Assembly: GCF_004795855.1 (NCBI RefSeq)
Contig: NZ_CP039252.1
Location: 3,968,001 to 4,032,000, forward strand
Direction: 5' to 3'
Source: Hydrogenophaga sp. PAMC20947
GTDB lineage: Bacteria > Pseudomonadota > Gammaproteobacteria > Burkholderiales > Burkholderiaceae_C
Length of the DNA stretch: 64,000 bases
The notes below the pieces were generated by a model. It saw only the letters and a program-made list of their open reading frames with translations. It made no database searches and was not told the origin of the DNA. Position numbers and translations under genes: made by a program. This document shows, piece after piece, positions 10,755-31,152 of the stretch (the first letter of the stretch is position 1; every line of letters begins with the position of its first letter).

Positions 10755-10757
10755 TGC

Positions 10758-13284: not shown

Positions 13285-13312
13285 CTTCGTGCCATTTATT
13301 TTATGCTATTGT

Positions 13313-13341: not shown

Positions 13342-13489
13342 AAAAAAGGTAAGATAATTTAAGGTAGATATTAAAATTGATTTTTGCTTTTGGGGGATAT
13401 TTAATCAAAAATACCAACCCCATAGATTGATATTTTGTTGTCTATTTGTCGAGGAGTAAAAACAGTATTGATATGAGGGTGCCGTCGTT

Positions 13490-13714: not shown

Positions 13715-13729
13715 GGTGTGGGGCCCGGT

Positions 13730-14920
13730 TTACTCAACGCTGACGTTGACGCGGTAGCCGTGGGTCTTCAGCAGAGCGTGCTGTTTGGCCAAGGCCAGGT
13801 CGTGTTCGACCATTTCTTTGCACATGTCTTGTGCGGTGATCTCGGGAATCCAGCCCAGGTCTTTTTTGGCTTTGCTGGGGTCGCCCAGCAGGGTTTCCAC
13901 TTCGGTGGGGCGGAAGTAACGGGGGTCGATTTTGACCACAATGTCGCCCACCTTTAGGGCGGGGGCCTTGCTGCCAGTAATGTCGGCCACTTTGGCAACT
14001 TCGTCCACGCCCGTGCCTTCAAAGGCGACGGTAATGCCCAGTGCGGCGGCGCTCCAGGTAATGAATTCGCGCACGCTGTATTGCACGCCGGTGGCGATGA
14101 CAAAGTCATCGGCTTTGTCTCGCTGAAGCATCATCCATTGCATGCGCACGTAGTCTTTGGCGTGGCCCCAGTCGCGCAGGGCATCGATGTTTCCCATGTA
14201 AAGGCACTTTTCCAGGCCCACAGCGATGTTGGCCAGGCCGCGGGTGATCTTGCGGGTAACAAAGGTTTCGCCGCGGCGGGGGGATTCGTGGTTGAACAAG
14301 ATGCCGTTACAGGCGTACATGCCGTAGGCTTCGCGGTAGTTCACCACGATCCAGTAGGCGTAGAGCTTGGCCACGGCGTAGGGGCTGCGGGGGTAAAAGG
14401 GCGTGGTTTCCGTTTGCGGGGTTTCTTGCACCAGGCCATACAGCTCAGAGGTGCTGGCCTGGTAGAAGCGGGTCTTCTTTTCCATGCCCAAGATGCGAAT
14501 GGCTTCCAGCAGGCGCAGGGTGCCCAGGCCGTCCACATCAGCGGTGTATTCCGGGCTTTCAAAGCTCACGGCCACATGGCTTTGCGCGCCCAGGTTGTAG
14601 ATCTCGTCGGGCTGGGTTTCTTGAACGATGCGGATGAGGTTGCTGGTGTCGCTCAAATCGCCGTAGTGCAGCTTGAAGTTGGCGTGTTCAATGTGCGGGT
14701 CTTGGTAGATGTGGTCCACACGCTGGGTGTTGAATGACGAAGCGCGGCGCTTGATGCCATGCACCATGTAGCCTTTTTCGAGCAGCAGCTCGGCGAGGTA
14801 AGAGCCGTCTTGCCCGGTCACGCCGGTGATGAGGGCGACTTTGGGTTTGTCCCCGTTGTTGCTGTTGCTGGTTTCGTTGTTGCTCGACATATCTTGGGTA
14901 TCGGTTAGGTTCGTGGTCAT
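13730..14920 (-). CDS. gmd: GDP-mannose 4,6-dehydratase
   Basis: A 396-residue extended SDR enzyme that converts GDP-D-mannose to GDP-4-keto-6-deoxy-D-mannose using bound [13 protein letters not shown] is at 32-40, the catalytic STSELYG at 156-162 and Tyr181-xxx-Lys185 (YAVAK). [15 protein letters not shown] and [16 protein letters not shown] are strongly conserved Gmd segments. The first 25 residues (Asn/Ser-rich) are not part of the fold, so translation may begin at Met11 (14890). fcl lies 41 bp upstream in the transcript, which completes the GDP-L-fucose pathway. GC content is high, in contrast to the adjoining cassette. Confidence 0.96.
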
Positions 14921-14961
14921 CGATTTGCGTCTGCGCTGGCTTGAGCGTTGGCCGGTGGGGC

Positions 14962-15942
14962 TCAGCCGTTGTGCTTCAGGAAGTCTTGGTAGGCCAGGGC
15001 CAGGCCGGTGGCCAGGGGCACCTGGGCTTTCCAGCCCAGGCTTTGCAGGCGGCTGCTGTCCATGAGCTTGCGGGGGGCGCCGTCGGGTTTGGTGGCGTCT
15101 TGGTTGATCTGGCCGGTATAGCCCACGGTTTGGGCCACGGTTTTGGCCAGATCGGCAATGTTCAGGTCGCTGCCAAAGCCCACGTTGATGTGGCTGAGCA
15201 TGGGCTGGGTGTGTTGGGCGTAGGTTTCGGCGGGCAGGTTCATCACGTGCACGCTGGCGGCGGCCATGTCGTCCACAAACAAAAACTCGCGGCGCGGCGT
15301 GCCCGAGCCCCAGATGACCACCTCGGGCGCGTTGTTGGCCTTGGCTTCGTGAAACCGGCGAATGAGCGCGGGGATCACGTGGCTGTTTTCGGGGTGGTAG
15401 TTGTCGCCGGGGCCATACAGGTTGGTGGGCATCACGCTGCGGTAGTCAACACCATGGCTGGCGCCATATTGCCGGTTGTAGCTTTCGCAGAGCTTGATGC
15501 CGGCGATTTTCGCCACGGCGTAGGGCTCGTTGGTGGGCTCCAAGGTGCCGGTGAGCAAGGCGTTTTCCGCCATGGGCTGGGGGGCGAGCTTGGGGTAGAT
15601 GCAGCTGCTGCCCAAAAACAGCAGCTTTTTCACGCCCTGGCGAAAGGCGGCTTCGATCACGTTGGCCTGGATCATCAGGTTGTCGTAGATGAAATCGGCC
15701 GGGTAGGTGTTGTTGGCATGAATGCCGCCCACGCGGGCTGCGGCCAAGTACACCTGGGTGGGGCGCGCTTGCTCAAAGAAGGCGCGAACGGCGGCTTGAT
15801 TGGTGAGGTCGAGCTCGGCGTGGGTGCGGGTGACGATGGCGCTGGGCGCGTGGCCGGCCGCCAGCAATTGGCGCACGATGGCCGAGCCCACCATGCCACG
15901 GTGGCCGGCGACGTAGATTTTTTCGGGGATGGAAGGCGTCAT
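14962..15942 (-). CDS. fcl: GDP-L-fucose synthase
   Basis: A 326-residue SDR epimerase/reductase that turns GDP-4-keto-6-deoxymannose into GDP-L-fucose with NADPH. The nucleotide motif is GHRGMVGS (13-20); FLGSSCIYP supplies the catalytic Ser/Cys region and [20 protein letters not shown] the Tyr-xxx-Lys pair. [21 protein letters not shown] and the [15 protein letters not shown] block are diagnostic of Fcl/WcaG. Length is standard. It lies between manC and gmd on the same strand; the three provide GDP-mannose and GDP-fucose for the polymer. Confidence 0.96.
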
Positions 15943-16053
15943 CTATGGGAGCGGCTGGCGCGCGCAGCGCGGGCCAGCGGTCAAGTAAAGAGGTAAAGGG
16001 CTGGGGCGGAACGGTGGTGGTGGGGCAAAAAGGCGGGCCGAAAAGGCCGGGGC

Positions 16054-17670
16054 CTATTTGACAACAACCGGGGCAGCGCCAGCAACAACACTCGTTTCAT
16101 CGCCCTTGCCGATGCCCGCAACGGGGCCGGGCAGGCCGGGGGCCACGCGGCCATAGGTGTCTTCCAGGCGCACGATGTCGTCTTCGCCCAGGTAGGCGCC
16201 CGACTGCACTTCGATCATTTCCAGCTCCAGCTTGCCGGGGTTGCGCAGGCGGTGGATCTCGCCAATGGGGATGTAGGTGCTCTGGTTCTCAGACATCAAA
16301 AACACATCGGTGCCGCGGGTGACTTCGGCCGTGCCTTTGACCACGATCCAGTGTTCGGCGCGGTGGTGGTGTTTTTGCAGGCTCAAGCTGGCGCCGGGTT
16401 TCACGCCGATGCGCTTGACCTGGAAGCGCTCGCCCATATCGATGCTGTCGTACCAGCCCCAGGGGCGGGCCACTTTGCGGTGGGTGGCGGCTTCGGCCAA
16501 GCTGAGCGATTCGAGCAGGCTGACCACGTCTTTCACCTGTTCGGCGCTGTCGCGGTGGGCCACCAGCAGGGCGTCGGGTGTGTCGATGATGAGCAGGTCT
16601 TGCGTGCCCAGGGCCACCACCGGGCGGTGGGGGGCGTGAATAAAGGTGTTGGTCGAATGCGGGGCGTGGCCCTGGCCTTCGATGCGGTTGCCTTGGGCGT
16701 CGGGCTCGCTCAGATCGGCCACGGCATTCCAGCTGCCCACATCGCTCCATTGGCCACTGAACGGCACCACGGCCACGTTGGCGTGGTGTTCCATCACCGC
16801 GTAATCGATGCTTTGTGAACGGCAGGCGGCAAAGGCGCCGGGGTGGGGGACCACCCAGGTGACGGCGTTGGCCGGGTCGCTTGCTGGGTTGCCGCTTCCG
16901 TTGAGCGGTGTGCCTGAGGCTTCGGGCAGCGAAGCGCGGCAGGCCGCCAAAATGTCGGGCGCGTGCTTGTGCAAGGCTTTGATCAGGGCGCTGGCGCGCA
17001 CCAGGAAGATGCCGGCGTTCCACAACACGCTGCCTTCGAGCAGCAGGGCCTGGGCCTGTTCGGCGGCGGGTTTTTCAATGAAGCGCGCCACTTGCCGCGC
17101 GCCATCGGGGTGGGGGTCGCCTTGGCGGATGTAGCCATAGGCGGTGCTGGGGAAGCTGGGCACCACACCAAAGGTGACGATGGCGCCGCCCTGGGCGGCG
17201 CTCACGCCTTGCTGAACCGTGTGGGCAAAGGCGGCCACGTCGGGGATGTGGTGGTCGGCGGGGCAAAACAGCAGCAGTTGATCGGGCTGGCCGCTGGCTT
17301 CGGCTTGCAGGGCGGCCAAAGCCATGGCGGCGGCGGTGTTGCGGCCCACGGGCTCCAGCAACACGGTGGCGGGTTTGGGGTTGTTTTTGGGGTTCGGTGC
17401 CTGGGCGCTTTGCAAGGCATCGGCCACCAGAAAGCGGTGGGCCTCTGAAGCCACCACCATCAGGCCACCGCCCAGGCCCTGCACCCGCTCCAGCGTGAGC
17501 TGCAGCAGGCTCTTGCCGCCAATGAGGGGCACAAACTGCTTGGGAAAACTTTTGCGGCTGAGCGGCCACAGGCGGGTACCGGAGCCGCCGCACAGGATCA
17601 CGGGGGTGATGGGTGTGGGGGCCGGGGTGGCTGCGGTGGTCGAGTGGTAAGCGGTCATAAAAAATGCCAA
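16054..17670 (-). CDS. manC: Mannose-1-phosphate guanylyltransferase/mannose-6-phosphate isomerase
   Basis: A 538-residue bifunctional type II enzyme. The N-terminal nucleotidyltransferase domain has CGGSGTRLWPLSRKSFPKQF starting at residue 27 and the FIEKP active-site block; the C-terminal cupin has LQKHHHRAEHWIVVKGTAEV, the isomerase metal site. It makes GDP-mannose, the substrate of gmd and of any mannosyltransferase here. The length is longer than usual (about 470-480) because of a 20-residue N-terminal leader, so Met6 may be the start, and a C-terminal Gly/Ala/Val-rich tail. No phosphomannomutase gene is in the window. Confidence 0.94.
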   Translation of the reverse strand: MAFFMTAYHSTTAATPAPTPITPVILCGGSGTRLWPLSRKSFPKQFVPLIGGKSLLQLTLERVQGLGGGLMVVASEAHRFLVADALQSAQAPNPKNNPKPATVLLEPVGRNTAAAMALAALQAEASGQPDQLLLFCPADHHIPDVAAFAHTVQQGVSAAQGGAIVTFGVVPSFPSTAYGYIRQGDPHPDGARQVARFIEKPAAEQAQALLLEGSVLWNAGIFLVRASALIKALHKHAPDILAACRASLPEASGTPLNGSGNPASDPANAVTWVVPHPGAFAACRSQSIDYAVMEHHANVAVVPFSGQWSDVGSWNAVADLSEPDAQGNRIEGQGHAPHSTNTFIHAPHRPVVALGTQDLLIIDTPDALLVAHRDSAEQVKDVVSLLESLSLAEAATHRKVARPWGWYDSIDMGERFQVKRIGVKPGASLSLQKHHHRAEHWIVVKGTAEVTRGTDVFLMSENQSTYIPIGEIHRLRNPGKLELEMIEVQSGAYLGEDDIVRLEDTYGRVAPGLPGPVAGIGKGDETSVVAGAAPVVVK

Positions 17671-17786
17671 CGCCGGCGCGGGGCCGGCTGCAGGGGAATG
17701 TGGGGATCAGGGACTATCGGAACAGGGGCGTGGCGGCGGGTGCGAAGGTTGGGGCGTGTGAATTCAGTGTTTGAGCGCGCTGGGTT

Positions 17787-19421
17787 TCAGCTGGCGCCTT
17801 CCTGTTTCACGACCACCCGCACGGTGCGCAGCAAGATCACAAAGTCGGTCCACATGGACCAGTTGCGCACATACCAGAGGTCCATGGCGATGCGGTGCTG
17901 GAAGGTGCTGGCGCTGCGCCCGCTGATCTGCCACAGCCCGGTGATGCCGGGGCGGGCTTTGCCGTAGGCGTTGATGCTGTTGCCGTATTCGCCCAGCTCG
18001 CGGGGCAGCAGGGGGCGCGGGCCCACGATGCTCATGTCGCCGCGCAACACATTCACCAGCTGGGGCAGCTCGTCGATGCTGGTGCGGCGGATGAACCGGC
18101 CAATGGCGGTCACCCGGGGATCGTTGGCGAGCTTGAAGTTGCTGGCCAGGTATTGCACGTAGAGGGCTTCGTTTTCGGTTTTCCAGCGCTCCAGGGCGGC
18201 GTCGGCATCGAGCACCATGCTGCGGAACTTGATGAACTTGAACAGCTTGCCGTCTTTGCCCACACGCTGCTGCGTGAAAAACACAGGGCCGCCGCCTTCG
18301 CGCTTGATGCGCCAGGCCACCCAGGCAAACAGCGGGGCCAGCAACACCAGCAGGGCGCTGGCGCCCACGATGTCCAGCACACGTTTCAGAAACTGGGGGC
18401 CGCGGCGCGACAGGCTGTTGCGGGCGCGCAGCAGCAGCACTTCATGGCTGAAGAAGTGCGAGACCTCCATGCCCAGCATCGGCAAACCGTTGAGGGCGGG
18501 GATGATGATCACGTCGTCTCGGGTGAGCATGAGCTCTTGGGTGAGCTCGCGCAGCCAGTGGTTGTCGCTGAAGCCCAGCACCGCCACCACCTGGTAAGCC
18601 CCGGGCTGGGCCAGCAGCTGGCGCACGGCGGGGGTCAAGGCGATGGGGGCCAGGGTGATCGGGCCCAGCTGGGTGAGGCGTTCGCCGGGATCGGGGCAGA
18701 CCACGGCCACCGGGGTGTAGCCCAGGAATCGCTCGCTGGCCAGGGCGGTGGCGGCTTGTTCCAGGTCTTCCGGGCGGCCCAGCAGCACATAAGGCTGGGT
18801 CAGCTTGCCGGCTTTCAGCAGGCGGATGCGAATGGACAGGCGCGCCAGCGGCAGGGCGCTGAAGATGAGCAGCCAGGTGACCCCGGTCCAGAGCCGGGAA
18901 AACTGCCACTTGCCCAGGTACATCAACACGGCATCGGCCATGGCCGCAATGATCACCACGGTGACCATCTGGCGGGCTTCGTCCCACCAGGGCTTGCGGC
19001 GCGAAGCGGTGTAGTGGCCCTGTACCGAGCCCATCCAGCCGATCATGCCCACCACGACCACGGCAAAAATACCCAGACGCAGCGGACCACCACCGACCCA
19101 CCAGATGTTCATGGCCTCGGCCAGGCTCACTTCTTGGCGCAGCCACATGGGCAGGCGCCCGACCAGAAAACACAGCCAGAAGACGCTGAGATCGGTGGCG
19201 ACCAGCCTGGCCTTGGTCCAGGACTGGTTGCGGCCCCAATCGGCCCAGGGGGCGAGGGCGCGGGCGAGCTCGTGGTCGCTGCGCAGGGGCACCACGGTAT
19301 CGCGGGGCTCACGGGGTCCGTTTGGGTCACCGCCTTGGGAGGGCTGCGCTGGCTGGGCCGGGTTGTAGGCCGAGCCTGCCTGCAACGGATCGGGCCTGGG
19401 GTGTTGGGCGGTGGCGCTCAT
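17787..19421 (-). CDS. wbaP: Undecaprenyl-phosphate galactose phosphotransferase (WbaP type)
   Basis: A 544-residue initiating phosphoglycosyl transferase that should load the first sugar phosphate, probably galactose-1-P, onto undecaprenyl phosphate. A Pro-rich cytoplasmic leader is followed by four to five membrane spans, a CoA-binding-like domain (VLLGRPEDLEQAA) and the catalytic C-terminal PGT domain: FTQQRVGKDGKLFKFIKFRSM, RRTSIDELPQLVNVLRGDMS, GPRPLLPRE and RPGITGLWQISGRS. I chose ATG 19421 because it overlaps the stop of a small upstream frame (ATGA) and an earlier ATG at 19484 lies in that frame. It heads the polysaccharide operon. Confidence 0.92.
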   Translation of the reverse strand: MSATAQHPRPDPLQAGSAYNPAQPAQPSQGGDPNGPREPRDTVVPLRSDHELARALAPWADWGRNQSWTKARLVATDLSVFWLCFLVGRLPMWLRQEVSLAEAMNIWWVGGGPLRLGIFAVVVVGMIGWMGSVQGHYTASRRKPWWDEARQMVTVVIIAAMADAVLMYLGKWQFSRLWTGVTWLLIFSALPLARLSIRIRLLKAGKLTQPYVLLGRPEDLEQAATALASERFLGYTPVAVVCPDPGERLTQLGPITLAPIALTPAVRQLLAQPGAYQVVAVLGFSDNHWLRELTQELMLTRDDVIIIPALNGLPMLGMEVSHFFSHEVLLLRARNSLSRRGPQFLKRVLDIVGASALLVLLAPLFAWVAWRIKREGGGPVFFTQQRVGKDGKLFKFIKFRSMVLDADAALERWKTENEALYVQYLASNFKLANDPRVTAIGRFIRRTSIDELPQLVNVLRGDMSIVGPRPLLPRELGEYGNSINAYGKARPGITGLWQISGRSASTFQHRIAMDLWYVRNWSMWTDFVILLRTVRVVVKQEGAS

Positions 19422-19657
19422 GCGAGGGCGCCTGGATGGCGGAGCCAGGCTTTGGGGCCGCTGCCGAGTGCCATGCTGAAGCATGCGCTCAAGGTTTCAA
19501 GGGCGCGGCCGAAGAAGCGATAGCCGAGGCTTTGGGGCGTGGAAATCACCGGCTGCAAACAGCCAAGCGCAAACCCAGGCAAAAGCCCAGGCGCTTGGGC
19601 GTTCGCCTGCCCCTCGTTCGAATCTCTATTCGTGCTCAGCAATGGCCCGTCAGTCAT
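19418..19657 (-). CDS. Short leader ORF coupled to wbaP, uncharacterised
   Basis: A 79-residue frame starting at ATG 19657 (MTDGPLLSTN) with a GGAGG about eleven bases upstream. Its stop overlaps the wbaP ATG as ATGA, the same junction used between other genes in this locus. It has no recognisable domain; the product is rich in Ala, Gly, Leu and Pro. It may be a real small protein, a leader peptide that couples wbaP translation, or chance. Conservation in relatives would decide. Confidence 0.35.
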   Translation of the reverse strand: MTDGPLLSTNRDSNEGQANAQAPGLLPGFALGCLQPVISTPQSLGYRFFGRALETLSACFSMALGSGPKAWLRHPGALA

Positions 19658-20475: not shown

Positions 20476-21021
20476 TCAGAGCGCCGTGATGTCGGTTTGC
20501 ACGGGCCAGGCCATGGCGGTAACGGTTGTGTTGGCGTTGGCTGTGGCCTGGGTGGTCGTGGCGCTGATCGCGGGCTTGAAGCTGTGTTGCAGCAGCAGGC
20601 TGTAGCGGCCGGGGCGGCTGGCGCAAAGGCGGTAGCCTTCGGCGGTGGGGGTGAGCAATGTGCCGCTGGCCTCGGCGGTTTGCAGCTGCCACTCGCCAGC
20701 CTGGGGCTGGTTGCGGCGCAGGGCCACGCAAAAGCCGTGTTTCATGTTGGACACCACCACCAGCCGCTGCTGACCCACCAGCGCGCCATCGGCCGAGGCC
20801 TGGAGCTGGCTGGGGTGGCTGTTTTCCAGCCCCCGCATCACGGGGGGGGTCACCACCCGAAACTGCAGTGTGGCGCTGGCGCCTGAGCCCCCGGCCTGGC
20901 CACCGCTGACGCTGAGCCCACCTTCGGCCCGGGCCATGACCGGAACCAGGGCCACACCGGCGGCGAGCGCCAGCAACATGACCCAAAAGCGCAGAGGACT
21001 GGGGCGGTGCAAGGTGGTCAT
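20476..21021 (-). CDS. Secreted subunit-like protein of the chaperone/barrel locus
   Basis: A 181-residue protein with a signal peptide (about 1-32, cut after ARA). The mature part opens with a short Gly/Ser-rich segment and then ATLQFRVVTPPVM, which matches LDFRVVVPRVLF in the pilin-like protein at 26087-26662; the rest differs and contains two cysteines (in GFCVAL and RLCASR) that could form a disulfide. It is the last gene on this strand of the secretion locus, separated from the barrel gene by the tandem repeat array. I do not recognise a named family; it may be a tip, anchor or minor subunit. Confidence 0.7.
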   Translation of the reverse strand: MTTLHRPSPLRFWVMLLALAAGVALVPVMARAEGGLSVSGGQAGGSGASATLQFRVVTPPVMRGLENSHPSQLQASADGALVGQQRLVVVSNMKHGFCVALRRNQPQAGEWQLQTAEASGTLLTPTAEGYRLCASRPGRYSLLLQHSFKPAISATTTQATANANTTVTAMAWPVQTDITAL

Positions 21022-21156
21022 GCCTAAGGTATCGGCACACCTTTGAGGAACTTGAAGCGCTCAGAAAAACATTCCGTGCAAGCCGTTCATTCGAGCCTTG
21101 TGGATGGGGGGTTCTGGTAGGGCTGAGGTGAAGGAGGTAGGGGCGTTGGCGGTGAA

Positions 21157-21598
21157 GTGGGGGGCGCAAGCGATCCGGCGCCGGGCCGCCCCAAGCCGGA
21201 TCAGCGCCCTCGGGGGGCAGCGACCCGCAACGCGGCGGGGTGTGGGGGCACGCAAGCGATCCGGCGCAGGGCCGCCCCAAGCCGGATCAGCCCCCTCGGG
21301 GGGCAGCGACCCGCAACGCGGCGGAGCGTGGGGGGCAAGGAACCAACGGGACCGGCGCCGGGCCGCCCCAAGGCCCAGCCCCCTCGGGGGGCAGCGACCC
21401 GCAACGCGGCGGGGTGTGGGGGCGCGCAAGCGATCCGGCGCCGGGCCGCCCCAAGCCGGATCAGCCCCCTCGGGGGGCAGCGACCCGCGCCAGCGGCGGG
21501 GTGTGGGGGCACGCAAGCGATCCGGCGCAGGGCCGCCCCAAGCCGGATCAGCCCCCTCGGGGGGCAGCGACCCGCGCCAGCGGCGGAGCGTGGGGGCT
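21157..21598. repeat. Five tandem copies of a GC-rich unit of about 86 bp
   Basis: The core CTCGGGGGGCAGCGACCCGC occurs at about 21209, 21295, 21383, 21469 and 21556, so the period is 86-88 bp. Four copies begin with GCAAGCGATCCGGCG; the third has a different opening (AAGGAACCAACGGGACCGG) of like length. Each unit contains inverted CCCTC/GGGGG type arms. It fills the gap between the barrel gene and the secreted gene at 20476-21021. Similar GC-rich palindromes are common between genes in Comamonadaceae. Confidence 0.9.
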
Positions 21599-21604
21599 AA
21601 AAGC

Positions 21605-23767
21605 TCATTCGCTCCGCTGCACCGGCAAGCTCAGGCGGGTGGTTTCTCGCAGGCGCACTTCAACCAAGGCCTGGCCTTCGTTGACCACGTTCCAGGGCAG
21701 GGGCAGGGTTTCGTTGCGCAGGGTGACGGTGCGCGGACCGGTGCCCACCAGGGGGAACGAGAAGCGGCCTTGGGCGTCGGTGCGCACGCCGTAGCGGTTG
21801 TCGATAAAGACGGTGACATTGGGTACACCGGTTTCGCTGGCTTCCTGGGTGCCGGTGCGGTTGGCGTCGTAATAGACCACGCCTTCGATGAAGCCACCGC
21901 CCTCAAAGGCCTGGCCGCCCAGGGGCACGCTGCGGCTGCCGGCTTCGAACTCATAGCGCAGCACCACATAAAACGAGCGGTCGCTGTCGCTTTGCGATGC
22001 GGTGGTGGTGATGATGGGGGCGAGGGGGTCTAGCGAGGTGGTGGTGGTGACGCTGCGGCCCAGGCTGCGGTTGAAGTTGGCGTCGAGCGTCCAGCGGGGG
22101 TTGATGCGCCAGTTGCCGCCCAGGCTGAGGGCTTGGCGGTTGCGCCCGAGCTGGCTGCGCTCGAGGCTGGCGGTGGCGTTGAGGCTGGCGCGGCTGCCCA
22201 CGGGGGCGTTGAGGGCGGTCGATGCGGTCCAGAAGCGGTCGCTTTGGGTGAGGCCTTCTTCCAGTGTGTCGCGCTCAACGCCGAGGCCAACGCTGCTGGA
22301 AACGGTCCAGCCCTGGGGGGCGGACCAGTCTTGGTCGTAGGTCAAGACCTGGCTGCGGGTTTGATCGCTGTCGCCGCCGGCGAGCTCCAGCCGCAGGCCG
22401 CTGTTGCCCCAGCGGTTGTCAAAGCGCCAGTCGCCGTAGGTGCTCCAGGCGTTGCCGTCGAAGCGGCGCACCGAGCCGCCGGCGCCCACGTTGCTGCTGC
22501 GGTCAAGGCGCCAGCGCGCGCTGGCCGAGGCGTAGCTGCCGGCGGCGCGATCGCCACTGATGGAGCGCAGCCAGTCGATCGAGCCTTCGGCCTGCCATTG
22601 GCGGGTGCGCCAGGCGGTGCTGACGGCGACGCCCTGGAGGTCGTTGGGCATGGTCTGGCCCGCCCAGCTGAGGCCGGGGTCGAGGCGGTAGAGGCTGAGG
22701 CCGTGGGTGCGGGGGCCTTCGTCCCACTGGCTGTCGACCCAGAAGCCCTGAGCGCTGCGGGCAATGGTGCTGGTTGTGGTGGTGGTCGCCGTGGATGTTG
22801 CTGTCGATGTGGCCGGGACATCCGACGCGCTGGTGATGACCTGGGCCTGGATGCGCTGGCCTTCGCTTTCATGGCGGGCCGCGAGCAGGGTGGCGCTGGC
22901 GGCGGTTCGCAGGGCGGATGTGGAGGCGGTGGTTGAGGTGTCGGTGGATTGCACCAGGCCACTCAGATCGCTGGCGTTTTCATGCTGGACGGCGAGGGTC
23001 CAGCCGGGGAGTTTGAGCGAAGGCGTGTTGTCTGGGGCGCCGCCGCCAGGGCGCCATTGCGCGCCCAGGGTATGGCGGCGTCCGCCCAGCCCGGTGAATC
23101 CGGTGGAGGGCAGGCTTTGCAGCTGGCCGGGCTGGCCGCTGCCGGCGATCACGCTGAGCCCCTGGCCTGCGTTGCGCCATTCGCCGCTGGCGCCGAGCAA
23201 GGTGGCCGACGGCAGGTAGACCCGCCCGGGCAGGCGGCTCAAATCGGTGGCGGGCGCGTTGATCACGCCGCCTTCGTGGTTGCCCACCCAACCGCCTTCG
23301 AGCGGCAGGCCGCGCTGGCGCAGGGTGAGGTTGCCGCTGCTGCTGCTCGGGGTGTAGGCGCCGTCGAGCGAGAGGGCGCCGTGGTTGGGGGTGTCGATCA
23401 GGCCGTAGAGGGCGAGGCTGTTCTGGGTGCTGCCCTCGGTGTCAAACGGCTGGGTGCCGACGCGGGACTCCAGGCGCAGGAAGCGCGGCCAGCCCGAACC
23501 GTCGTAGGGCTGGCCACTGGGCGCGCTGCTGGCGGCGGGGGCCAGGCCTTCAATGACGCGGTCCTGGTAAGGCGCGGGCTCGGTGGGGCTGGCGGCGGCT
23601 GGGGCCGCAGTGGGGGCCTGGGCGCCGGCGGGGCTGGCGATCCAGCCCAGAGCCATGAGGCCCAGGGCTGCAGCCCCTTTGGGCCTGAGGCGCCGATGGG
23701 GCTGAACAACCCCAAGCCTTTCGACAGCCTCAGGGCCGGTCTTCCCCAGCCAGACCCGGGGTTTCAT
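21605..23767 (-). CDS. Probable outer membrane beta-barrel, usher-like role, with C-terminal Ig-like domain
   Basis: A 720-residue exported protein. The start at 23767 overlaps the stop of the chaperone gene (ATGA); an in-frame extension to 24196 only runs through the chaperone in another frame and is not real. After a signal sequence (about 22-50) and a Pro/Ala linker come many amphipathic strands with a RLESRVGTQPF start and repeated W/Y-rich strand pairs (ESRG..W..., RWRLDRSSNVGAGGSVRR, NPRWTLDANFNRSLGR, FYVVLRYEFEAGS), as in a barrel. The last 95 residues (IEGVVYYDANRTGTQEASE) are an SdrD-B/CarboxypepD_reg-like fold with DANRTGTQ in the calcium-loop position. I see no FimD or PapC hallmark. 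Position beside a PapD-like chaperone suggests subunit export. Confidence 0.7.
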   Translation of the reverse strand: MKPRVWLGKTGPEAVERLGVVQPHRRLRPKGAAALGLMALGWIASPAGAQAPTAAPAAASPTEPAPYQDRVIEGLAPAASSAPSGQPYDGSGWPRFLRLESRVGTQPFDTEGSTQNSLALYGLIDTPNHGALSLDGAYTPSSSSGNLTLRQRGLPLEGGWVGNHEGGVINAPATDLSRLPGRVYLPSATLLGASGEWRNAGQGLSVIAGSGQPGQLQSLPSTGFTGLGGRRHTLGAQWRPGGGAPDNTPSLKLPGWTLAVQHENASDLSGLVQSTDTSTTASTSALRTAASATLLAARHESEGQRIQAQVITSASDVPATSTATSTATTTTTSTIARSAQGFWVDSQWDEGPRTHGLSLYRLDPGLSWAGQTMPNDLQGVAVSTAWRTRQWQAEGSIDWLRSISGDRAAGSYASASARWRLDRSSNVGAGGSVRRFDGNAWSTYGDWRFDNRWGNSGLRLELAGGDSDQTRSQVLTYDQDWSAPQGWTVSSSVGLGVERDTLEEGLTQSDRFWTASTALNAPVGSRASLNATASLERSQLGRNRQALSLGGNWRINPRWTLDANFNRSLGRSVTTTTSLDPLAPIITTTASQSDSDRSFYVVLRYEFEAGSRSVPLGGQAFEGGGFIEGVVYYDANRTGTQEASETGVPNVTVFIDNRYGVRTDAQGRFSFPLVGTGPRTVTLRNETLPLPWNVVNEGQALVEVRLRETTRLSLPVQRSE

Positions 23768-24621
23768 GGGGCGAAGCGGTGATCGATGGGCATGCGTTGA
23801 TCGGCCCACTCCAGCTGGCCGCTGACGGTGATCGGGAACAGCATCGTGGGCGGGGCTTTGTCTTGCTCGACCACGGGGTTGAGCTCGATGCGGCGGCTTT
23901 CTCCGGGGAGTATGGGCATGTCGGCCGGGGCGAGCTCCACGGTTTTGCCGCTGGCGTCGGTGGCGTTGACAAAGCCGTCGAGCCGGCCGGTGGCGTTGCC
24001 GGTGTTGCGCACATTGAGGGTGGCTGTGGGCTGGCCTTTGAGGGTGACCACTTGCTGGCCGGTCAGGGTGAGCTCGGGCTTGGCGCCCCCCACGGCGGCG
24101 TAAACGATGACGCCAATGCGCCCGCTCACGGGGAAGCTGATGTCGCCGGTGATGCGGGCGGGGTCCAGGCCCTCGATCATGAGGGCGAAGCGGCATTCGC
24201 GCGGCGGGGTGCCGGGCGGGGGGGTGATCTCAAAACGGTAGCGGTAGGCGGCGCCCCCGGCCAGGGTGAGGTCGCGCCGTTCAATGGCCACCCAGGGGCG
24301 GCAGCTGTCGGGCGCGAGTTCGTTGCTGAAGGTCACGGCGTTGTCGGGGCCGAGCGTCCAGTCGCTGGTGTAGAAGCGGTATTGGCCGGGCTGGTTGCCC
24401 ACGTGTTGCAGCTCCAGCACCTGTCGCAAGGGCTCACCGGGCTGGACCTGCACTTCAAACCGGGGCGGCGAGACATAGGCCGCGAAGCCCTGGGCCAGCG
24501 CCGAGGGCGCCGCGAGGGCGGCCCCGGCGAGCGCCGCGGCCGATGCGCAAGCGCGCGCCACATGGCGGGCTGAAAAGGGGTTGCCGGCGGGGCGACGAAA
24601 GCGGGGTGAGAACACGGTCAT
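23764..24621 (-). CDS. PapD-like periplasmic chaperone
   Basis: A 285-residue protein with a signal sequence (about 1-45). The mature part starts FAAYVSPPRFEVQVQPGEPLRQVLELQHVG, the Ig-like first domain of pilus chaperones, with a second domain containing GRIGVIVYAAVGGAKPELTLTG and TLNVRNTGNATGRLDG. In PapD proteins a conserved Arg/Lys pair anchors the subunit C-terminus; candidate residues exist in the first domain but cannot be proven here. It is longer than classical chaperones (about 220 mature residues). Neighbours are two secreted proteins upstream and the barrel downstream with an ATGA overlap, so it most likely keeps the small subunits soluble in the periplasm. Confidence 0.75.
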   Translation of the reverse strand: MTVFSPRFRRPAGNPFSARHVARACASAAALAGAALAAPSALAQGFAAYVSPPRFEVQVQPGEPLRQVLELQHVGNQPGQYRFYTSDWTLGPDNAVTFSNELAPDSCRPWVAIERRDLTLAGGAAYRYRFEITPPPGTPPRECRFALMIEGLDPARITGDISFPVSGRIGVIVYAAVGGAKPELTLTGQQVVTLKGQPTATLNVRNTGNATGRLDGFVNATDASGKTVELAPADMPILPGESRRIELNPVVEQDKAPPTMLFPITVSGQLEWADQRMPIDHRFAP

Positions 24622-24651
24622 GCAGGCATGCAGTCTTGCAGGTAAGGAAGG

Positions 24652-25185
24652 TCAGCGGGCGGAGGTTGAGGCGGTGGGCGCCAGGGGGGCGTCTGCGCCG
24701 TCGACGTCGAGCTCGAAATAGAAGTTGAGGCGGCGGCTGGAGGTTTCCCAGTCGGGGGCGGAGCGCAGGCGCACCTGGATCTGGTCTTGCAGGGTGCTGC
24801 CGGCAATGCGCCCGGCGTAGACCAGGGCGCGTTCGCCCGAGACCAGCCGGCCGGCTCGCAGGGTGCCGTTGGTGGTCCACTCGGCTTCCATGCTGGAAGC
24901 TTGGTCGCGGGGCAAGACCATGTAGACGCGGCCGGTGCGGCCCACCCAGTCGCTGGTGTCAATGCGGACGTTCACGCGCACCCAGGCTTCCACCCCGGCA
25001 TCGGGCTCGGCGCCGGTCTGGGCGCGCCACTGCATTTGCGCGCTGGCGGGCACGGTGTGGCTGAGGGCATCGTCGAGCCGGTGCGGGTTGGCCACGGCGG
25101 GGCCGCTGAACAGCAGCAGGGTGCCGATCAGGGCGGCGACCAGGCTGGGCAGCGGCCTCAGACTGCAGGTTTGGCTTGGGTTCAT
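24652..25185 (-). CDS. Secreted protein of the chaperone/barrel locus
   Basis: A 177-residue protein with an N-terminal signal sequence (about 1-32, ending SGPAVA). The mature part is beta-rich, with VEAWVRVNVRIDTSDWVGRTG, YMVLPRDQ and LNFYFELDV near the end, and no cysteines after the leader. Its ATG overlaps the stop of the upstream secreted gene (ATGA), and the chaperone gene follows after 30 bp, so the operon is tight. I do not recognise a family. It could be a minor subunit, an adaptor or a periplasmic assembly factor. Confidence 0.7.
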   Translation of the reverse strand: MNPSQTCSLRPLPSLVAALIGTLLLFSGPAVANPHRLDDALSHTVPASAQMQWRAQTGAEPDAGVEAWVRVNVRIDTSDWVGRTGRVYMVLPRDQASSMEAEWTTNGTLRAGRLVSGERALVYAGRIAGSTLQDQIQVRLRSAPDWETSSRRLNFYFELDVDGADAPLAPTASTSAR

Positions 25186-25829
25186 GGGCTGCTCAGCGTG
25201 TAGGTGACCTGCCCGGTGTAGGTGCCGGCGGCCCGCACGGTCTCATTGGCGTAGACAAAGCTGTGGCAGTTTTCGATGTAGGTATTGGCCCGGATAGAGG
25301 CCAGCGTGAGCGAACCACCATTGAATGCGCCCGCAGCGATCACATTGCTCTGGGCGCTGCCCGAGGCCGATACGCTCCAGCTGATCTGGGAAAACGGAAT
25401 GGTGTCGCTGTTGTCGTTGACGAGGTTGGCGGGCGATGTCACGCGCAGGGTGGCTCTCGCCGGGCCGTCTCTGCCGTTGTTGCGGCGGTAAGAGGCGCCG
25501 ATCAGGATCTGGCTGGCCGGGTTGGGGCAGGTGCTGTAGCCATCGTAGAGGCTGCGCGACTGGGTGCTGTTGGTGGTCATGGCCTGCGGATTGCCGCCGA
25601 TGAGCTGGGCACTGGTGAGGGTGGACGAGACGGTGTTGACGGTGCCGTTGTTGCCATCGTATGTGCCATTGCCCACGTGCAGGAACACGCGGCGCGAGGC
25701 CGAGGCGAGCGACAGGGTCCAGGCGTGGGCGCTGGTGATCTGAGACAGGCACACCAAGGCGAGCGCAGCGGCCCGCCAGGCGCCGCGTGAGGGGTGCAGG
25801 GCGGCGGTGCGGTGCAAGGGCGTGTTCAT
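25182..25829 (-). CDS. Pilin-like secreted subunit
   Basis: A 215-residue exported protein (signal about 1-36, ending TSAHA). The mature part is Ser/Thr/Asn-rich and ends AAGTYTGQVTYTLSSP, an alternating hydrophobic strand like the C-terminal strand of chaperone-usher pilins. It shares three segments with the 26087-26662 product: VFLHVGNGTY, SDTIPFSQISW and that C-terminus. Two cysteines (STCPNP and ENCHSF) may pair. I chose ATG 25829; upstream in-frame codons lack a signal-like start. It is the first gene after the hairpin terminator and may be a minor or tip subunit. Confidence 0.72.
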   Translation of the reverse strand: MNTPLHRTAALHPSRGAWRAAALALVCLSQITSAHAWTLSLASASRRVFLHVGNGTYDGNNGTVNTVSSTLTSAQLIGGNPQAMTTNSTQSRSLYDGYSTCPNPASQILIGASYRRNNGRDGPARATLRVTSPANLVNDNSDTIPFSQISWSVSASGSAQSNVIAAGAFNGGSLTLASIRANTYIENCHSFVYANETVRAAGTYTGQVTYTLSSP

Positions 25830-25988
25830 GAGGGTTTCATTGTCTACCAGCCGGCGTGACGCCGTTGCGGCAGCGGATGGGGTGCACGCTGGATGGTCTG
25901 AAAGGCAGGGGGGCGGCAAGGGGACGGCTCGGAATCGCCAAGGGCGATGCCAAGAAAAAGGCAGGGCATCAGCGGCAAGCGCTCAGCA

Positions 25989-26018
25989 AAAAGGGCCGTT
26001 GCGAACAACGGCCCTTTT
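25989..26018 (-). terminator. Strong hairpin terminator after the major pilin-like gene
   Basis: A perfect 13-bp stem (25989-26001 with 26006-26018, GGGCCGTTG core) closes a four-base loop and is followed on the minus strand by TTTTT counting the stem end. It lies 69 bp past the stop of the pilin-like gene at 26087. It should end or attenuate transcription so that the first gene is made in excess over the rest of the locus. A second GGGGG/CCCCC hairpin follows at 26028-26044. Confidence 0.85.
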
Positions 26019-26086
26019 CAAAAATGGCCCCCTTTTCGAGGGGGTTGGCTCGGCCGATGGCCGGGCTTGTGCGCTACAGCGCAGGC

Positions 26087-26662
26087 TCAGGGCATGGTGG
26101 CGGTGTAGGTCACGGTACCGTTGTAGGTGCCGGAGGCGGGCACGGTGTTGTTGGCGTAGCTGTACTTCCAGGTGGTCTGGTGGAGCGTGACCTTGCTGCC
26201 CGAGGAGATTGTGGGTTTGGCGGATCCCCCCACGGCTGGCACGTCGAAGTTGGTGGCGTCATCGGACTTTGCGATGATTTCGGCCCAAGGGATGGTGTCG
26301 CCAGTGGTGGCGCCCACCAAGCCCTCCACATTCGAGCCCACCGCACCAATTTCGATCTGGCCGTTGTTGCCCAAGACCTTGACGCTGACGTTTTGAGCGG
26401 TCGATGCCGTCTTGTTGCCCAGGGTGGCGGCGGCGGCGGCGCTGGCGTAGTTGAAGGTCAGCATGTCGACCTTGGTGTTTCTGGCGAAACCGCTGGCGCC
26501 GGTGCCCACGGCCAGGAACAGCACGCGTGGCACAACCACACGGAAGTCAAGTTTGGCGGCGGCGTTGCCGTTGCCGATCACGAGGCGCGATTCGGCCGAA
26601 GCGAGCAGGGGGGCGGCCAGGGCCAGGGCAATTGCGGTGTTGAGAATGAGGGCTTTTTTCAC
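26087..26662 (-). CDS. Major pilin-like secreted subunit
   Basis: A 191-residue exported protein. It starts at GTG 26662 with an AAGGA-type ribosome site just upstream and has a signal sequence (1-23, ending LASA). The mature part is Gly/Ala/Thr-rich, cysteine-free and beta-strand-like, and closes with ASGTYNGTVTYTATMP. It resembles the 25182-25829 product in VLFLAVGTG, GDTIPWAEI and the C-terminal strand, and the 20476 product in DFRVVVPRV. Its position as first gene, followed by a strong terminator, fits an abundant structural subunit. No named pilin family was recognised. Confidence 0.75.
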   Translation of the reverse strand: MKKALILNTAIALALAAPLLASAESRLVIGNGNAAAKLDFRVVVPRVLFLAVGTGASGFARNTKVDMLTFNYASAAAAATLGNKTASTAQNVSVKVLGNNGQIEIGAVGSNVEGLVGATTGDTIPWAEIIAKSDDATNFDVPAVGGSAKPTISSGSKVTLHQTTWKYSYANNTVPASGTYNGTVTYTATMP

Positions 26663-26862: not shown

Positions 26863-27372
26863 TCAAGTTTTGCGGCCACTTGCCGTGGGTAGTGCTTTGG
26901 GCAGCAAATGCCCCAGCGGCAAAGCCCCCGCCGCCTTCACTTCGCCCAGCGAAAAGCTGGTGTGCAGGTCTTTCACGTTGGGCAGGTTGATCAGCACATC
27001 GCGGGCGAACTGGCTGAAGGTGTTGAGATCGCTGCTGACCACCTGCAGCTCGAAGGTGCCGGTGCCGCTGATGTAGTGGCAGCTGGTGACCTCGGGCAGG
27101 CGGCGGATGGCTTCTTCCAGCTTGCCCAGCAATTCACCCGAGTTTTGCGCGGCATCGAGCCGCACAAAGGCCAGCACATCGAGGCCGATTTTGTGGCGGT
27201 CGATCTCGGCGCGGTAGCCGCGGATGAAGCCCGCTTCTTCCAGCGCACGCACCCGGCGCCAGCAGGGCGCGGCCGACAGGCCCACGCGCTGCGCAAGCTC
27301 GGCGTTGGTCAGCCGCCCGTTTTGTTGCAGTTCGTTCAGAATGATGCGGTCAAACTTGTCGAGTGTTTCCAT
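26863..27372 (-). CDS. Lrp/AsnC family transcriptional regulator
   Basis: A 169-residue DNA-binding protein. Residues 4-60 form the Lrp winged helix-turn-helix (LDKFDRIILNELQQNGRLTNAELAQRVGLS), and about 70-150 the RAM ligand domain with DVLAFVRLDA and GTFELQVVSSDLNTF. It is divergent from the fused indolepyruvate oxidoreductase gene 180 bp away, a layout seen for local amino-acid-responsive regulators, so control of that enzyme by an aromatic amino acid or keto acid is a reasonable inference. A palindrome just before its start is a candidate operator. Confidence 0.93.
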   Translation of the reverse strand: METLDKFDRIILNELQQNGRLTNAELAQRVGLSAAPCWRRVRALEEAGFIRGYRAEIDRHKIGLDVLAFVRLDAAQNSGELLGKLEEAIRRLPEVTSCHYISGTGTFELQVVSSDLNTFSQFARDVLINLPNVKDLHTSFSLGEVKAAGALPLGHLLPKALPTASGRKT

Positions 27373-27552: not shown

Positions 27553-30500
27553 ATGAACGCCCCTCTGCCCGAACACATTCGCCGCGCCCTGGAAACGGTG
27601 ACGCTGGACGACAAATACTCGCTTGACCACGGTCGGGCTTTCATGAGCGGGGTGCAGGCGCTGGTGAAGCTGCCCATGCTGCAGCGCCAGCGCGATGCCT
27701 TGCAGGGCAAGAACACGGCGGGCTTCATCAGCGGCTACCGGGGCTCGCCGCTGGGGGGTTACGACCAGGCCTTGCAAAAGGCCGAGCCTTTTCTCAAGGC
27801 GCAAAACATCGTCTTCCAGCCGGGTGTGAACGAAGAGCTGGCGGCCACGGCTTTGTGGGGCACGCAGCAGCTGGGTTTTGCGCCCGAGGGCTCAAACAGG
27901 TTCGACGGCGTGTTTGGCATCTGGTACGGCAAGGGCCCCGGGGTTGACCGCTGCTCGGATGTGTTCAAACACGCCAACATGGCGGGCACCACGCCTTGGG
28001 GCGGTGTGATCGCGGTGGCCGGTGACGACCACATTTCCAAGAGCTCGACGGCGGCCCACCAGAGCGACCACATTTTCAAAGCCTGCGGCTTGCCGGTGTT
28101 TTTCCCGTCGACCGTGCAAGACATTCTGGATCTCGGCATTCATGCCATCGCCATGAGCCGCTTCAGCGGCGTGTGGGCGGGGCTGAAGACGATCCAGGAG
28201 ATCGTCGAATCAAGCGCCACGGCCGAGATCGACCCGAACCGGGTGAAGATCGTGGTCCCCGAATTCGACATGCCGCCCGGGGGCGTGCACATCCGCTGGC
28301 CCGACCACGCACTGGAACAGGAAGCGCGCCTGTTCGACTACAAGTGGTACGCCGCGCTGGCCTACATCCGCGCCAACAAGCTCAACCACAACGTGATCTC
28401 GGGGCCGAACGACCGCTTTGGTGTGATCGCCAGCGGCAAGGCCTACAACGACACGCGCCAGGCGCTGCTCGATCTGGGCCTGGACGACGCCACCTGCCAG
28501 CGCATTGGCCTGCGCCTGCACAAGGTCAATGTGGTGTGGCCGCTCGAGGCGCAGACCACGCGGGAATTTGCCGAGGGCTTGCGCGAAATTCTGGTGGTGG
28601 AAGAAAAACGCCAGGTCATCGAATACCAGATCAAGGAAGAGCTCTACAACTGGCGCGGCGATGTGCGTCCCCTGGTGTTGGGCAAGTTCGACGAGGTCGA
28701 CGGTGATTTTACCGGTGGCGAATGGAGCATGCCCAACCCCAGCGCCCACCACCTGCTGCGCGCCAACGCCGATCTGAACCCGGCCATCATTGCCCGTGCG
28801 ATCGCCAAGCGCTTGCGCAAACTGGGGGTGCCCGACGATGTGCAGGCGCGCATCGATTCGCAGCTGGCGATTCTGACGGCGCAGGAGCAGTCGATGCAGA
28901 CGCTGCTGACCGTGGGTGTGCCCGGCGCCGAGCGCCAGCCCTGGTTTTGTTCGGGCTGCCCGCACAACACCAGCACCAAAGTGCCCGAGGGCTCGCGCGC
29001 CATGGCCGGCATTGGCTGCCATTTCATGACGATCTGGATGGACCGCGCCACGGTGGGCTTCACGCAGATGGGCGGCGAGGGCGTGCCCTGGATCGGGCAG
29101 CAGCCGTTCAGCAACGAGAAGCACATGTTCGCCAACCTGGGCGACGGCACCTATTTCCACAGCGGCATTCTGGCGATCCGCCAGAGCATCGCTGCGGGCG
29201 TGAACATCACCTACAAGATTCTCTACAACGACGCCGTGGCCATGACGGGCGGCCAGCAGGTGGGCGAGCGAGAAGAGGGCCACAGCGTGGTGCAGATCGC
29301 GCAGAGCATGCGCGCCGAAGGGGCGGTGAAGATCATCATCGTGACCGACGAGCCCGAGAAGTACGACGGCGTGAGCGGCCTGCCCAGTGGCATCGCGATC
29401 CAGCACCGCGACACGCTGGAAGCCGTGCAGCTTGAATTCCGCGAGATCAAGGGCACCACGGTCATCATTTACGACCAGACCTGCGCCACCGAAAAGCGCC
29501 GCCGCCGCAAGCGCGGCACGATGGTTGAGCCCACCGAGCGCGTGATCATCAACGAGCTGGTGTGTGAGGGTTGTGGCGATTGCGGTGTGCAGTCCAACTG
29601 CCTGAGCGTGGAGCCGCTGGAGACCGAATTCGGCCGCAAGCGCACCATCAACCAGAGCAGCTGCAACAAGGACTTCTCTTGCGTCAAAGGCTTCTGCCCG
29701 AGCTTTGTCACCGTTGACGGCGGCAGCCTGCGCAAGAAGAAAAAGGGCGACGCCGCCACCGAATGGACCGGCGGCGATCTGCCCGAGCCGACCCTGCCTG
29801 TGCTGAAGGCCGAGGCCTGGGGCGTGATCGTGGCGGGCGTGGGTGGCACGGGGGTCATCACCATTGGCCAGCTGCTGGGCATGGCCGCCCACCTGGAAGG
29901 CAAGGGCATCGTCACGCAAGACGCGGCGGGCCTGGCCCAAAAGGGCGGCGCCACCTGGAGCCATGTGCTGATCGGCGCCAGGCAGGACGACATCCGCACC
30001 ACCCGCGTGGGCTCGGCTTCGGCCGATCTGGTGATCGGCTGCGACCCGATCGTGGCGGCCCACAAAGACACCTGGCAACGCCTGCGCGCCGGGCGCAGCC
30101 ATGTGGCGCTGAACGCCAATGCGTCGCCCACGGCGGCCTTTGTGACCAACCCCGACTGGCAGAACCCGGCGCAGGCCTGCGTGGACACGCTGGTGAGCAA
30201 CCTGGGCGGCGACGCGGTGGGTGTGGTGAACGCCGAGATGGCGGCTTCGAAGCTGATGGGCGACGGCATTTACACCAACCCCATGATGCTGGGCTACGCC
30301 TGGCAACGCGGCTGGGTGCCGCTGGGTTTTGTGGCGCTGATGCGGGCGATCGAGCTCAACGGCGTGCAGGTGGCGAACAACAAGACGGCCTTTGAATGGG
30401 GCCGCCGCGCTGCGCACGATCCCAAGGGTTTTGCGGCTTTGCTGACCGGTGGCGGCGCGCAGGTGATCCAGTTCAAGCCCCGCGAGACGGTGGCCACGGT

Positions 30501-31152
30501 GATCGAGCGCCGGGTGGCGTTTCTCACCGACTACCAGAATGCGGCTTACGCGGCCGAGTACCAGCACTTTGTGGACCGCGTGCGCAAGGCCGAGGCGCCG
30601 CTGGGCAAATCGGACTTGACCATGGCGGTGGCCCGCTACCTCTTCAAGCTCATGGCCTACAAGGACGAGTACGAAGTGGCCCGCCTGCACAGCGACAAAG
30701 CCTTCCACGACCGCATTGCCAGCCAGTTTGAGGGCGACTTCAAGCTGCGCGTGCACCTGGCGCCGCCGCTGCTGGCCAAGAAAAACGCCAAGGGCGAGCT
30801 GATCAAGCAGAAGTACGGCCCGTTCATGTTCACGGCCTTTGGCTGGATGGCGAAGTTCAAGGGCCTGCGGGGCACAGCGCTGGATGTGTTTGGCTACACC
30901 GAAGAGCGCCGCACCGAGCGCGCCCTGATTGGTGAATACCGAACCGCCATCGAAGCCTTGTTGCTCGATCTGGACGCCGACAACTACACCTTGGCGCTGG
31001 AGATCGGGCGTTTGCCCGACCAGATCAAGGGCTTTGGCCATGTGAAAGAGCGCAACCTGGCTGCGGTGCGCAGCCGCTGGGCTGAATTGCAGGCGCGCTG
31101 GGCAGCGGGTGACGTGGCGGCGCCTGCGCCGGTGGCGGCCAACGCGCGGTAA
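27553..31152 (+). CDS. Fused indolepyruvate ferredoxin oxidoreductase (IorA-IorB type)
   Basis: A 1199-residue enzyme that oxidatively decarboxylates aryl 2-oxo acids to acyl-CoA using thiamine diphosphate and ferredoxin. The N-terminal half has the 2-oxoacid oxidoreductase alpha fold (NTAGFISGYRGSPLGGYD, WFCSGCPHNTSTKVPEG) and the TPP region (GIGCHFMTIWM, GGEGVPWIGQQ, YNDAVAMTGGQ). A Cys-rich block at about 672-715 (CEGCGDCGVQSNC...C..C..C) should bind Fe-S. The IorB/gamma domain begins near residue 756 (GVIVAGVGGTGVITIGQ), and a long C-terminal domain follows. One-chain fusion is usual in aerobic Burkholderiales. The divergent Lrp-type gene probably regulates it. Confidence 0.93.
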   Translation: MNAPLPEHIRRALETVTLDDKYSLDHGRAFMSGVQALVKLPMLQRQRDALQGKNTAGFISGYRGSPLGGYDQALQKAEPFLKAQNIVFQPGVNEELAATALWGTQQLGFAPEGSNRFDGVFGIWYGKGPGVDRCSDVFKHANMAGTTPWGGVIAVAGDDHISKSSTAAHQSDHIFKACGLPVFFPSTVQDILDLGIHAIAMSRFSGVWAGLKTIQEIVESSATAEIDPNRVKIVVPEFDMPPGGVHIRWPDHALEQEARLFDYKWYAALAYIRANKLNHNVISGPNDRFGVIASGKAYNDTRQALLDLGLDDATCQRIGLRLHKVNVVWPLEAQTTREFAEGLREILVVEEKRQVIEYQIKEELYNWRGDVRPLVLGKFDEVDGDFTGGEWSMPNPSAHHLLRANADLNPAIIARAIAKRLRKLGVPDDVQARIDSQLAILTAQEQSMQTLLTVGVPGAERQPWFCSGCPHNTSTKVPEGSRAMAGIGCHFMTIWMDRATVGFTQMGGEGVPWIGQQPFSNEKHMFANLGDGTYFHSGILAIRQSIAAGVNITYKILYNDAVAMTGGQQVGEREEGHSVVQIAQSMRAEGAVKIIIVTDEPEKYDGVSGLPSGIAIQHRDTLEAVQLEFREIKGTTVIIYDQTCATEKRRRRKRGTMVEPTERVIINELVCEGCGDCGVQSNCLSVEPLETEFGRKRTINQSSCNKDFSCVKGFCPSFVTVDGGSLRKKKKGDAATEWTGGDLPEPTLPVLKAEAWGVIVAGVGGTGVITIGQLLGMAAHLEGKGIVTQDAAGLAQKGGATWSHVLIGARQDDIRTTRVGSASADLVIGCDPIVAAHKDTWQRLRAGRSHVALNANASPTAAFVTNPDWQNPAQACVDTLVSNLGGDAVGVVNAEMAASKLMGDGIYTNPMMLGYAWQRGWVPLGFVALMRAIELNGVQVANNKTAFEWGRRAAHDPKGFAALLTGGGAQVIQFKPRETVATVIERRVAFLTDYQNAAYAAEYQHFVDRVRKAEAPLGKSDLTMAVARYLFKLMAYKDEYEVARLHSDKAFHDRIASQFEGDFKLRVHLAPPLLAKKNAKGELIKQKYGPFMFTAFGWMAKFKGLRGTALDVFGYTEERRTERALIGEYRTAIEALLLDLDADNYTLALEIGRLPDQIKGFGHVKERNLAAVRSRWAELQARWAAGDVAAPAPVAANAR

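What the first reader, a model, noticed from the sequence alone, without database searches (positions are those of the whole stretch)
20476..26662. Candidate new chaperone-assisted secretion locus without a recognisable usher
Seen: a PapD-like chaperone (23764-24621) translated together with a 720-residue barrel-like protein (21605-23767) that has a C-terminal Ig-like/prealbumin-like domain, four small signal-peptide proteins, and a strong terminator after the first. Two of the small proteins (26087-26662, 25182-25829) share three segments and both end in an alternating hydrophobic strand like pilins. Family knowledge: chaperone-usher pathways use a FimD-type usher of about 800 residues; I see none of its hallmarks here. 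Inference: a fibre or surface layer built by a distinct barrel.
Basis: partly seen in the sequence, partly recalled or inferred. Interest (0 to 1): 0.75.

Follow-up and report, generated by a model that had tools for sequence, protein, structure and literature searches.

The report
Pilus-like operon with stripped-down usher
Some environmental bacteria carry a conserved gene set that looks like a chaperone-usher pilus factory, except that the usual outer-membrane usher is replaced by a smaller barrel without plug or docking domain, which may show how little machinery such fibres need.

Summary
On the minus strand lie two pilin-like genes (A, B), a small exported protein (C), a two-domain chaperone (D), a 720-aa barrel (E) and a further small gene (F). 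None of the six passes a Pfam or NCBIfam cut-off. D belongs to the PapD superfamily. A is predicted to have the fold of a chaperone-usher pilin. E is predicted as a 26-strand barrel plus one small C-terminal domain, without usher N-terminal domain or plug. The set is conserved in several gene orders: 45 of 47 loci with E also have C and D, and 7 of 7 further loci found with D alone have E. Of 21 genomes with the locus, 16, this one included, have no PF00577 usher. E-linked chaperones form one clade. E's tail resembles the first C-terminal domain of archaic-type ushers; its barrel shows no detectable homology. Best reading: an undescribed chaperone-usher-type fibre system with a minimal, reduced or replaced usher. 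Fibres, donor-strand exchange and export through E are inferred, not shown.

The parts
26087..26662 (-). A: pilin-like subunit, 191 aa, likely the most expressed one
   Evidence: AlphaFold2 model pLDDT 87.6; the 50 Foldseek rows listed are all from chaperone-usher pilus entries; expression rank is inference from the hairpin behind it
25985..26060 (-). Hairpin with T run between A and B (terminator or attenuator)
   Evidence: Fold z-score -4.12, 0 of 200 shuffles as good
25182..25829 (-). B: second pilin-like subunit, 215 aa
   Evidence: Similar to A at the C-terminus; found by both pilin profiles in relatives
24652..25185 (-). C: small exported protein, 177 aa, role unknown (tip subunit or assembly cofactor)
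   Evidence: Beside D in 45 of 47 loci; no family or PDB match; no profile match to the pilins (3.9%)
23764..24621 (-). D: PapD-superfamily periplasmic chaperone, 285 aa
   Evidence: hhalign 97.6-99.1% to PapD chaperones, 0.4% to SCPU control; R54 and R168 invariant in 33 sequences
21605..23767 (-). E: outer-membrane barrel with one C-terminal beta domain, 720 aa, proposed assembly platform
   Evidence: Model with 26 strands, no plug, no N-terminal domain; tail like archaic usher CTD1
20476..21021 (-). F: small exported protein, 181 aa, weakly pilin-like
   Evidence: Relatives beside the locus in 7 of 47 loci (L031, L032, L033, L055, L064, L065, L075); the F profile also hits some pilin ORFs at E about 1e-6 to 1e-4

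Best explanation
The locus encodes a chaperone-usher-type fibre system in which the usher's place is taken by E, a minimal barrel. Inferred working: the pilin-like subunits are exported by Sec; D completes their open Ig fold and holds the subunit C-terminus through R54 and R168; chaperone-subunit complexes go to E; the N-terminal extension of the next subunit displaces D by donor-strand exchange; the fibre leaves through E's pore. As E has no usher N-terminal domain, no plug and only one C-terminal domain, docking and gating must rest on that domain, on E's short N-terminal segment around the Y-x-D motif, and perhaps on C. E is most likely a drastically reduced and diverged usher that kept the barrel end and the first C-terminal domain; replacement by another barrel is not excluded. 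Shown by computation: the gene set and its conservation, D's family, A's predicted fold, E's predicted architecture, absence of PF00577 ushers in most of these genomes. Inferred: fibres, docking, exchange, export through E.
For: Linkage: C and D beside E in 45 of 47 loci, the two misses lying at contig ends; D alone as bait gave 7 new loci, E in 7 of 7, three times on the opposite strand. D is PapD-like. A's model matches chaperone-usher pilins. 16 of 21 genomes with the locus have no PF00577 usher. E-linked chaperones are one side of a branch, 100/99. E against archaic-type ushers 95.3%, E 2e-8; classical ushers 0.3%, LptD 0.4%, TonB receptors 3.9%. Foldseek's first nine rows for E are FimD.
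Confidence: 0.72

Rival explanations
1. E is not derived from ushers: an unrelated large barrel with an SdrD_B/prealbumin-like tail was recruited by a PapD-type chaperone and pilins, giving a convergent translocon.
For: No homology signal for the barrel; predicted 26 strands, nearest in size to MtrB; tail nearer to SdrD_B domains (98.9%). Even diverged ushers still align with PF00577 ushers over 635-710 columns at 93.5-99.7%, E does not.
Against: The tail aligns with archaic usher CTD1 through to its end and sits directly behind the barrel, as in ushers; the alignment with bridge ushers includes the last strands; SdrD_B domains and archaic ushers do not match each other well (14.2%).
Confidence: 0.33
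2. E is an ordinary usher too diverged for the models, with N-terminal domain and plug present but unseen.
For: Chaperone and pilin-like subunits present; usher-like tail.
Against: The model has no gap between strands above 25 residues and no folded N-terminal domain; by eye only about 45 residues lie between a likely signal cleavage and the barrel.
Confidence: 0.06
3. The set is not a fibre system: D and E secrete single adhesins or a surface layer, or E is a porin or electron conduit like MtrB.
For: MtrB is the top VIA-align row for E; no filament has been seen.
Against: Pilin-fold subunits in several copies per locus; PapD-type chaperone; no CxxCH haem motif in A, B, C, D or F (read).
Confidence: 0.2

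Closest known systems
Archaic (Csu/sigma-type) chaperone-usher pathway
   Same: PapD-type chaperone; pilin-fold subunits; large barrel with a CTD1-like domain
   Different: Barrel not matched by PF00577, no N-terminal domain, plug or second C-terminal domain, 26 instead of 24 strands predicted (the usher's 24 is recalled); pilins do not match SCPU
DUF4402-linked chaperone systems (L125, L134, probably L129) and the L128/L217-L221 bridge family
   Same: PapD-type chaperone beside a large outer-membrane protein with an SdrD_B- or CarboxypepD_reg-like tail that PF00577 does not report
   Different: Their outer-membrane proteins are 658-888 aa and align with PF00577 ushers nearly end to end; E does not
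MtrB-type 26-strand barrel
   Different: No multihaem partner; a chaperone and pilins instead
WxL/WxLIP surface system of Gram-positive bacteria
   Same: Weak similarity of D to WxLIP: PDB E 0.033, Pfam 7 of 33 members
   Different: No WxL protein seen; the similarity is sub-threshold and probably only tandem Ig-like domains

Membership tests
Chaperone-usher pathway | PapD-type two-domain periplasmic chaperone | tested here: met
   hhalign 97.6-99.1%, SCPU control 0.4%. Pfam PapD_N only sub-threshold, 5 of 33 members, best E 0.03
Chaperone-usher pathway | Pilin subunits with incomplete Ig fold and N-terminal extension | tested here: met
Chaperone-usher pathway | Usher of family PF00577 | tested here: not met
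   No match in E or the own genome; 16 of 21 genomes with the locus have none
Chaperone-usher pathway | Usher N-terminal chaperone-docking domain | tested here: not met
   Residues 1-86 have no structure, pLDDT below 50; prediction only
Chaperone-usher pathway | Plug domain inserted in the barrel | tested here: not met
   Largest gap between the 26 strands is 25 residues; prediction only
Chaperone-usher pathway | Two usher C-terminal domains | tested here: inconclusive
   One CTD1-like domain: 93.9% to archaic-type ushers, 0.1% to classical ones, but 98.9% to SdrD_B-like domains; no second domain in the model
Chaperone-usher pathway | 24-strand barrel | tested here: inconclusive
   26 strands predicted; Foldseek ranks FimD first, VIA-align MtrB
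Chaperone-usher pathway | Polymerisation by donor-strand exchange | not testable with these tools
   Needs complexes or fibres
SCPU (PF05229) or DUF4402 (PF14352) pilins | Family match of the subunits | tested here: not met
   No match in the own genome; profile comparison 2.3% and 0.3% (the comparison sets were small, 14 and 3 sequences)
MtrB-type electron conduit | Multihaem cytochrome partner | tested here: not met
   No CxxCH in A, B, C, D or F, read

The most novel reading that the evidence does not exclude
E is not an usher at all: a non-homologous, plug-less barrel of about 26 strands took over the usher's job, making this a chaperone-pilin pathway with a different outer-membrane assembly platform.
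Probability: 0.33. Interest if true: 0.85.

Novelty: new variant of a known kind. Interest (0 to 1): 0.7.

Why it matters
Ushers use an N-terminal docking domain, a plug and two C-terminal domains to recruit, gate and hand over subunits (recalled). A conserved natural system that pairs a PapD-type chaperone and pilin-fold subunits with a barrel lacking most of these would show which parts are dispensable and make docking and gating testable in a simpler machine. It would also give a function to protein families that public sources name only 'hypothetical', 'COG1470 family' or 'SdrD B-like domain-containing'.

Tried and rejected
Rejected: E as an ordinary usher; pilins as SCPU or DUF4402 members; E as a relative of LptD or TonB receptors (0.4% and 3.9%); MtrB-like electron conduit (no CxxCH).

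Dropped before counts: of the 34 genomes matched, 20 were left out (19 match only E's C-terminal domain, mostly inside large ORFs; G119 only residues 20-109, E 9e-4). Of the 51 loci (L078-L094) share only the C-terminal domain. The label 'PF00577-usher' there was checked by a neighbouring usher for 2 of 8 rows only (L042, L147), and the DUF4402 label by a family match for 2 of 3. SdrD_B comparison: 60 of 112 domains were used. Some orders are distorted because ORFs were taken stop to stop.

Led nowhere: PDB sequence searches gave SdrD-type matches for E's tail and otherwise weak or chance hits; Rfam nothing; promoter scan nothing. The two trees disagree on the nearest relatives of the E-linked chaperones. 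The hairpin between A and B was not found conserved by eye in four relatives. Profile comparisons were spoiled by loci read on the wrong strand and were redone. The D search in the order scored at most 8 candidates per genome, so misses are possible. Families missing from the VIA-align rows are not excluded. A search for ushers like L128 had one genome in its order and 7 of 369 in the class.

Literature: (open-access PubMed Central only; some returned nothing). I saw listings and opening lines of abstracts and read no paper.

Full report
What is there. Six minus-strand genes at 20476-26662 encode A (191 aa), B (215), C (177), D (285), E (720) and F (181). B-C and D-E overlap by ATGA, and a strong hairpin with a T run separates A from B. 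Pfam and NCBIfam give no match above cut-off for any of the six; E has a sub-threshold SdrD_B/CarboxypepD_reg stretch at 630-684. The own genome has no PF00577 usher, PF00345 chaperone, PF14352 or PF05229 match.

Relatives. Protein searches gave 284 relatives of E, 2374 of D and 517 of A at E<=0.001 (the first two scored only the 8000 candidates sharing most words, and 120 rows were listed each time). Organism names given by sources are mostly Hydrogenophaga, which suggests the window's genus (inference).

Distribution and linkage. With E as query 34 of 200 genomes of the family matched: 14, the own one included, over the barrel; 19 only in the C-terminal domain; one weakly at residues 20-109. 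The 13 others with a barrel were fetched. A scan of genome contigs with an alignment of seven distant E proteins gave 51 loci, 34 with a barrel (Variovorax, Ramlibacter, Comamonas, Xenophilus, Pseudacidovorax, Hydrogenophaga and genomes named only to higher rank) and 17 with the C-terminal domain only. Of the 47 loci with a barrel, 45 have both C and D; in the other two, L035 and L063, the contig ends beside the set. All 47 have at least one pilin-family ORF. About five are repeats. Gene order varies: pilin-pilin-C-D-E near the window, E-pilins-C-D-pilin in most others, C-D-E-pilins in L036.

Independent test. D alone as bait matched 9 of 300 genomes of the order. The seven beyond the own genome and one congener were fetched: E lies beside D in 7 of 7, C and pilins in 6 of 7, the seventh contig ending within D. 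In L147-L149 E is on the opposite strand, so the association outlives operon structure.

No ordinary usher. PF00577 was found in 5 of 21 genomes with the locus and not in the other 16. In G063 (L042) an ordinary usher, a chaperone and a gene that looks pilin-like by eye lie directly beside the E locus; in G314 (L147) a usher and chaperone lie within about 5 kb.

Chaperone. Profile comparison aligns D with PapD chaperones over both domains: 97.6%, E 3.5e-12 with six archaic-type ones; 98.9% with four others; 99.1%, E 4.7e-19 with all 13; SCPU control 0.4% (hhalign values are for single comparisons). Pfam's PapD_N is sub-threshold (5 of 33 members, best E 0.03), fn3_5 and WxLIP do as well or better (9 and 7 of 33). 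R54 and R168 are invariant in 33 sequences and fall on the basic positions of the archaic chaperones by my reading of the alignment; their match to PapD R8 and K112 is recalled. In a tree of 57 chaperones the 43 E-linked ones form one side of a branch, 100/99. In a second tree of 35 rows the E-linked (19), ordinary archaic-type (8) and DUF4402-type (3) chaperones each form one side of a branch, and the bridge type (5) is unresolved. The chaperone type thus seems to track the outer-membrane partner; not all partner labels were verified (see Tried and rejected).

Profiles of E. Against nine ushers 94.7%, E 6.2e-8, over the later part of the barrel and the C-terminal domain; LptD 0.4%, TonB receptors 3.9%. 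Against 25 archaic-type ushers 95.3%, E 2e-8; 13 classical ushers 0.3%. C-terminal domain alone: 93.9% and 0.1%. Barrel alone: 0.4-13.8% against ushers, 4.5% against TonB receptors, 0.4% against LptD, so no evidence. The C-terminal domain matches SdrD_B-like domains at 98.9%; archaic-type ushers match those at 14.2%, DUF4402-type ones at 85.6%. A bridge family of diverged ushers (L217-L221), with PapD-type chaperones in 5 of 5 loci, aligns with E at 91.2% over the last strands and C-terminal domain, and at 0.3% with the barrel alone. Bridge and DUF4402-type ushers still align with PF00577 ushers over 635-710 columns at 93.5-99.7%, so E is unlike even diverged ushers.

Interpretation. A PapD-type chaperone, pilin-fold subunits and a dedicated barrel, conserved together mostly without an ordinary usher, are best explained as a chaperone-usher-type fibre system whose platform has been cut down to barrel plus one C-terminal domain, or replaced. 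Either way it is open what docks the chaperone-subunit complexes and what closes the pore. Candidates are the segment around Y67 and D69 (invariant in 14 sequences; D69 invariant and Y67 at 90% or more in 61; the fuller pattern in 36 of 50 ORFs, some of them partial), the C-terminal domain with its invariant PLPW, and protein C.

Known or new. Ten searches of an open-access library showed no description of this set; subscription papers and preprints were not covered. I rate it a new variant of a known kind; it would be more if E proves unrelated to ushers.

Noticed in passing
window 21157-21597: About five copies of an 87-bp GC-rich repeat between E and F, with a CCCCCGAGGGGGC-like dyad in each copy.
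   Followed up: no
L042 11068-15473 (same place as L058) and L147 13716-17251: An ordinary usher with its own chaperone lies beside the E locus.
   Followed up: partly
L059 1900-14415; L075 8734-20054: Comamonas sp. JUb58 has two tandem copies of the E locus; Hydrogenophaga borbori has one locus of each gene order side by side.
   Followed up: no
L125, L128, L129, L134, L217-L221: Outer-membrane proteins beside PapD-type chaperones, some with DUF4402 proteins, align with ushers by profile, yet Pfam's usher model did not report the four scanned as whole ORFs.
   Followed up: partly
window 26863-27372 and 27553-31152: An Lrp/AsnC-like regulator and a 1199-aa indolepyruvate-ferredoxin-oxidoreductase-like gene (named by eye) flank the locus, and similar genes lie beside it in L031 and L032.
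   Followed up: no
window 1057-19484: The other flank looks like an exopolysaccharide cluster: glycosyltransferases, nucleotide-sugar enzymes, export protein (named by eye).
   Followed up: no
protein D, alignment A4: Weak similarity of D to the Gram-positive WxL-interacting protein (PDB EfmWxLIP1 E 0.033; 7 of 33 members in Pfam).
   Followed up: no
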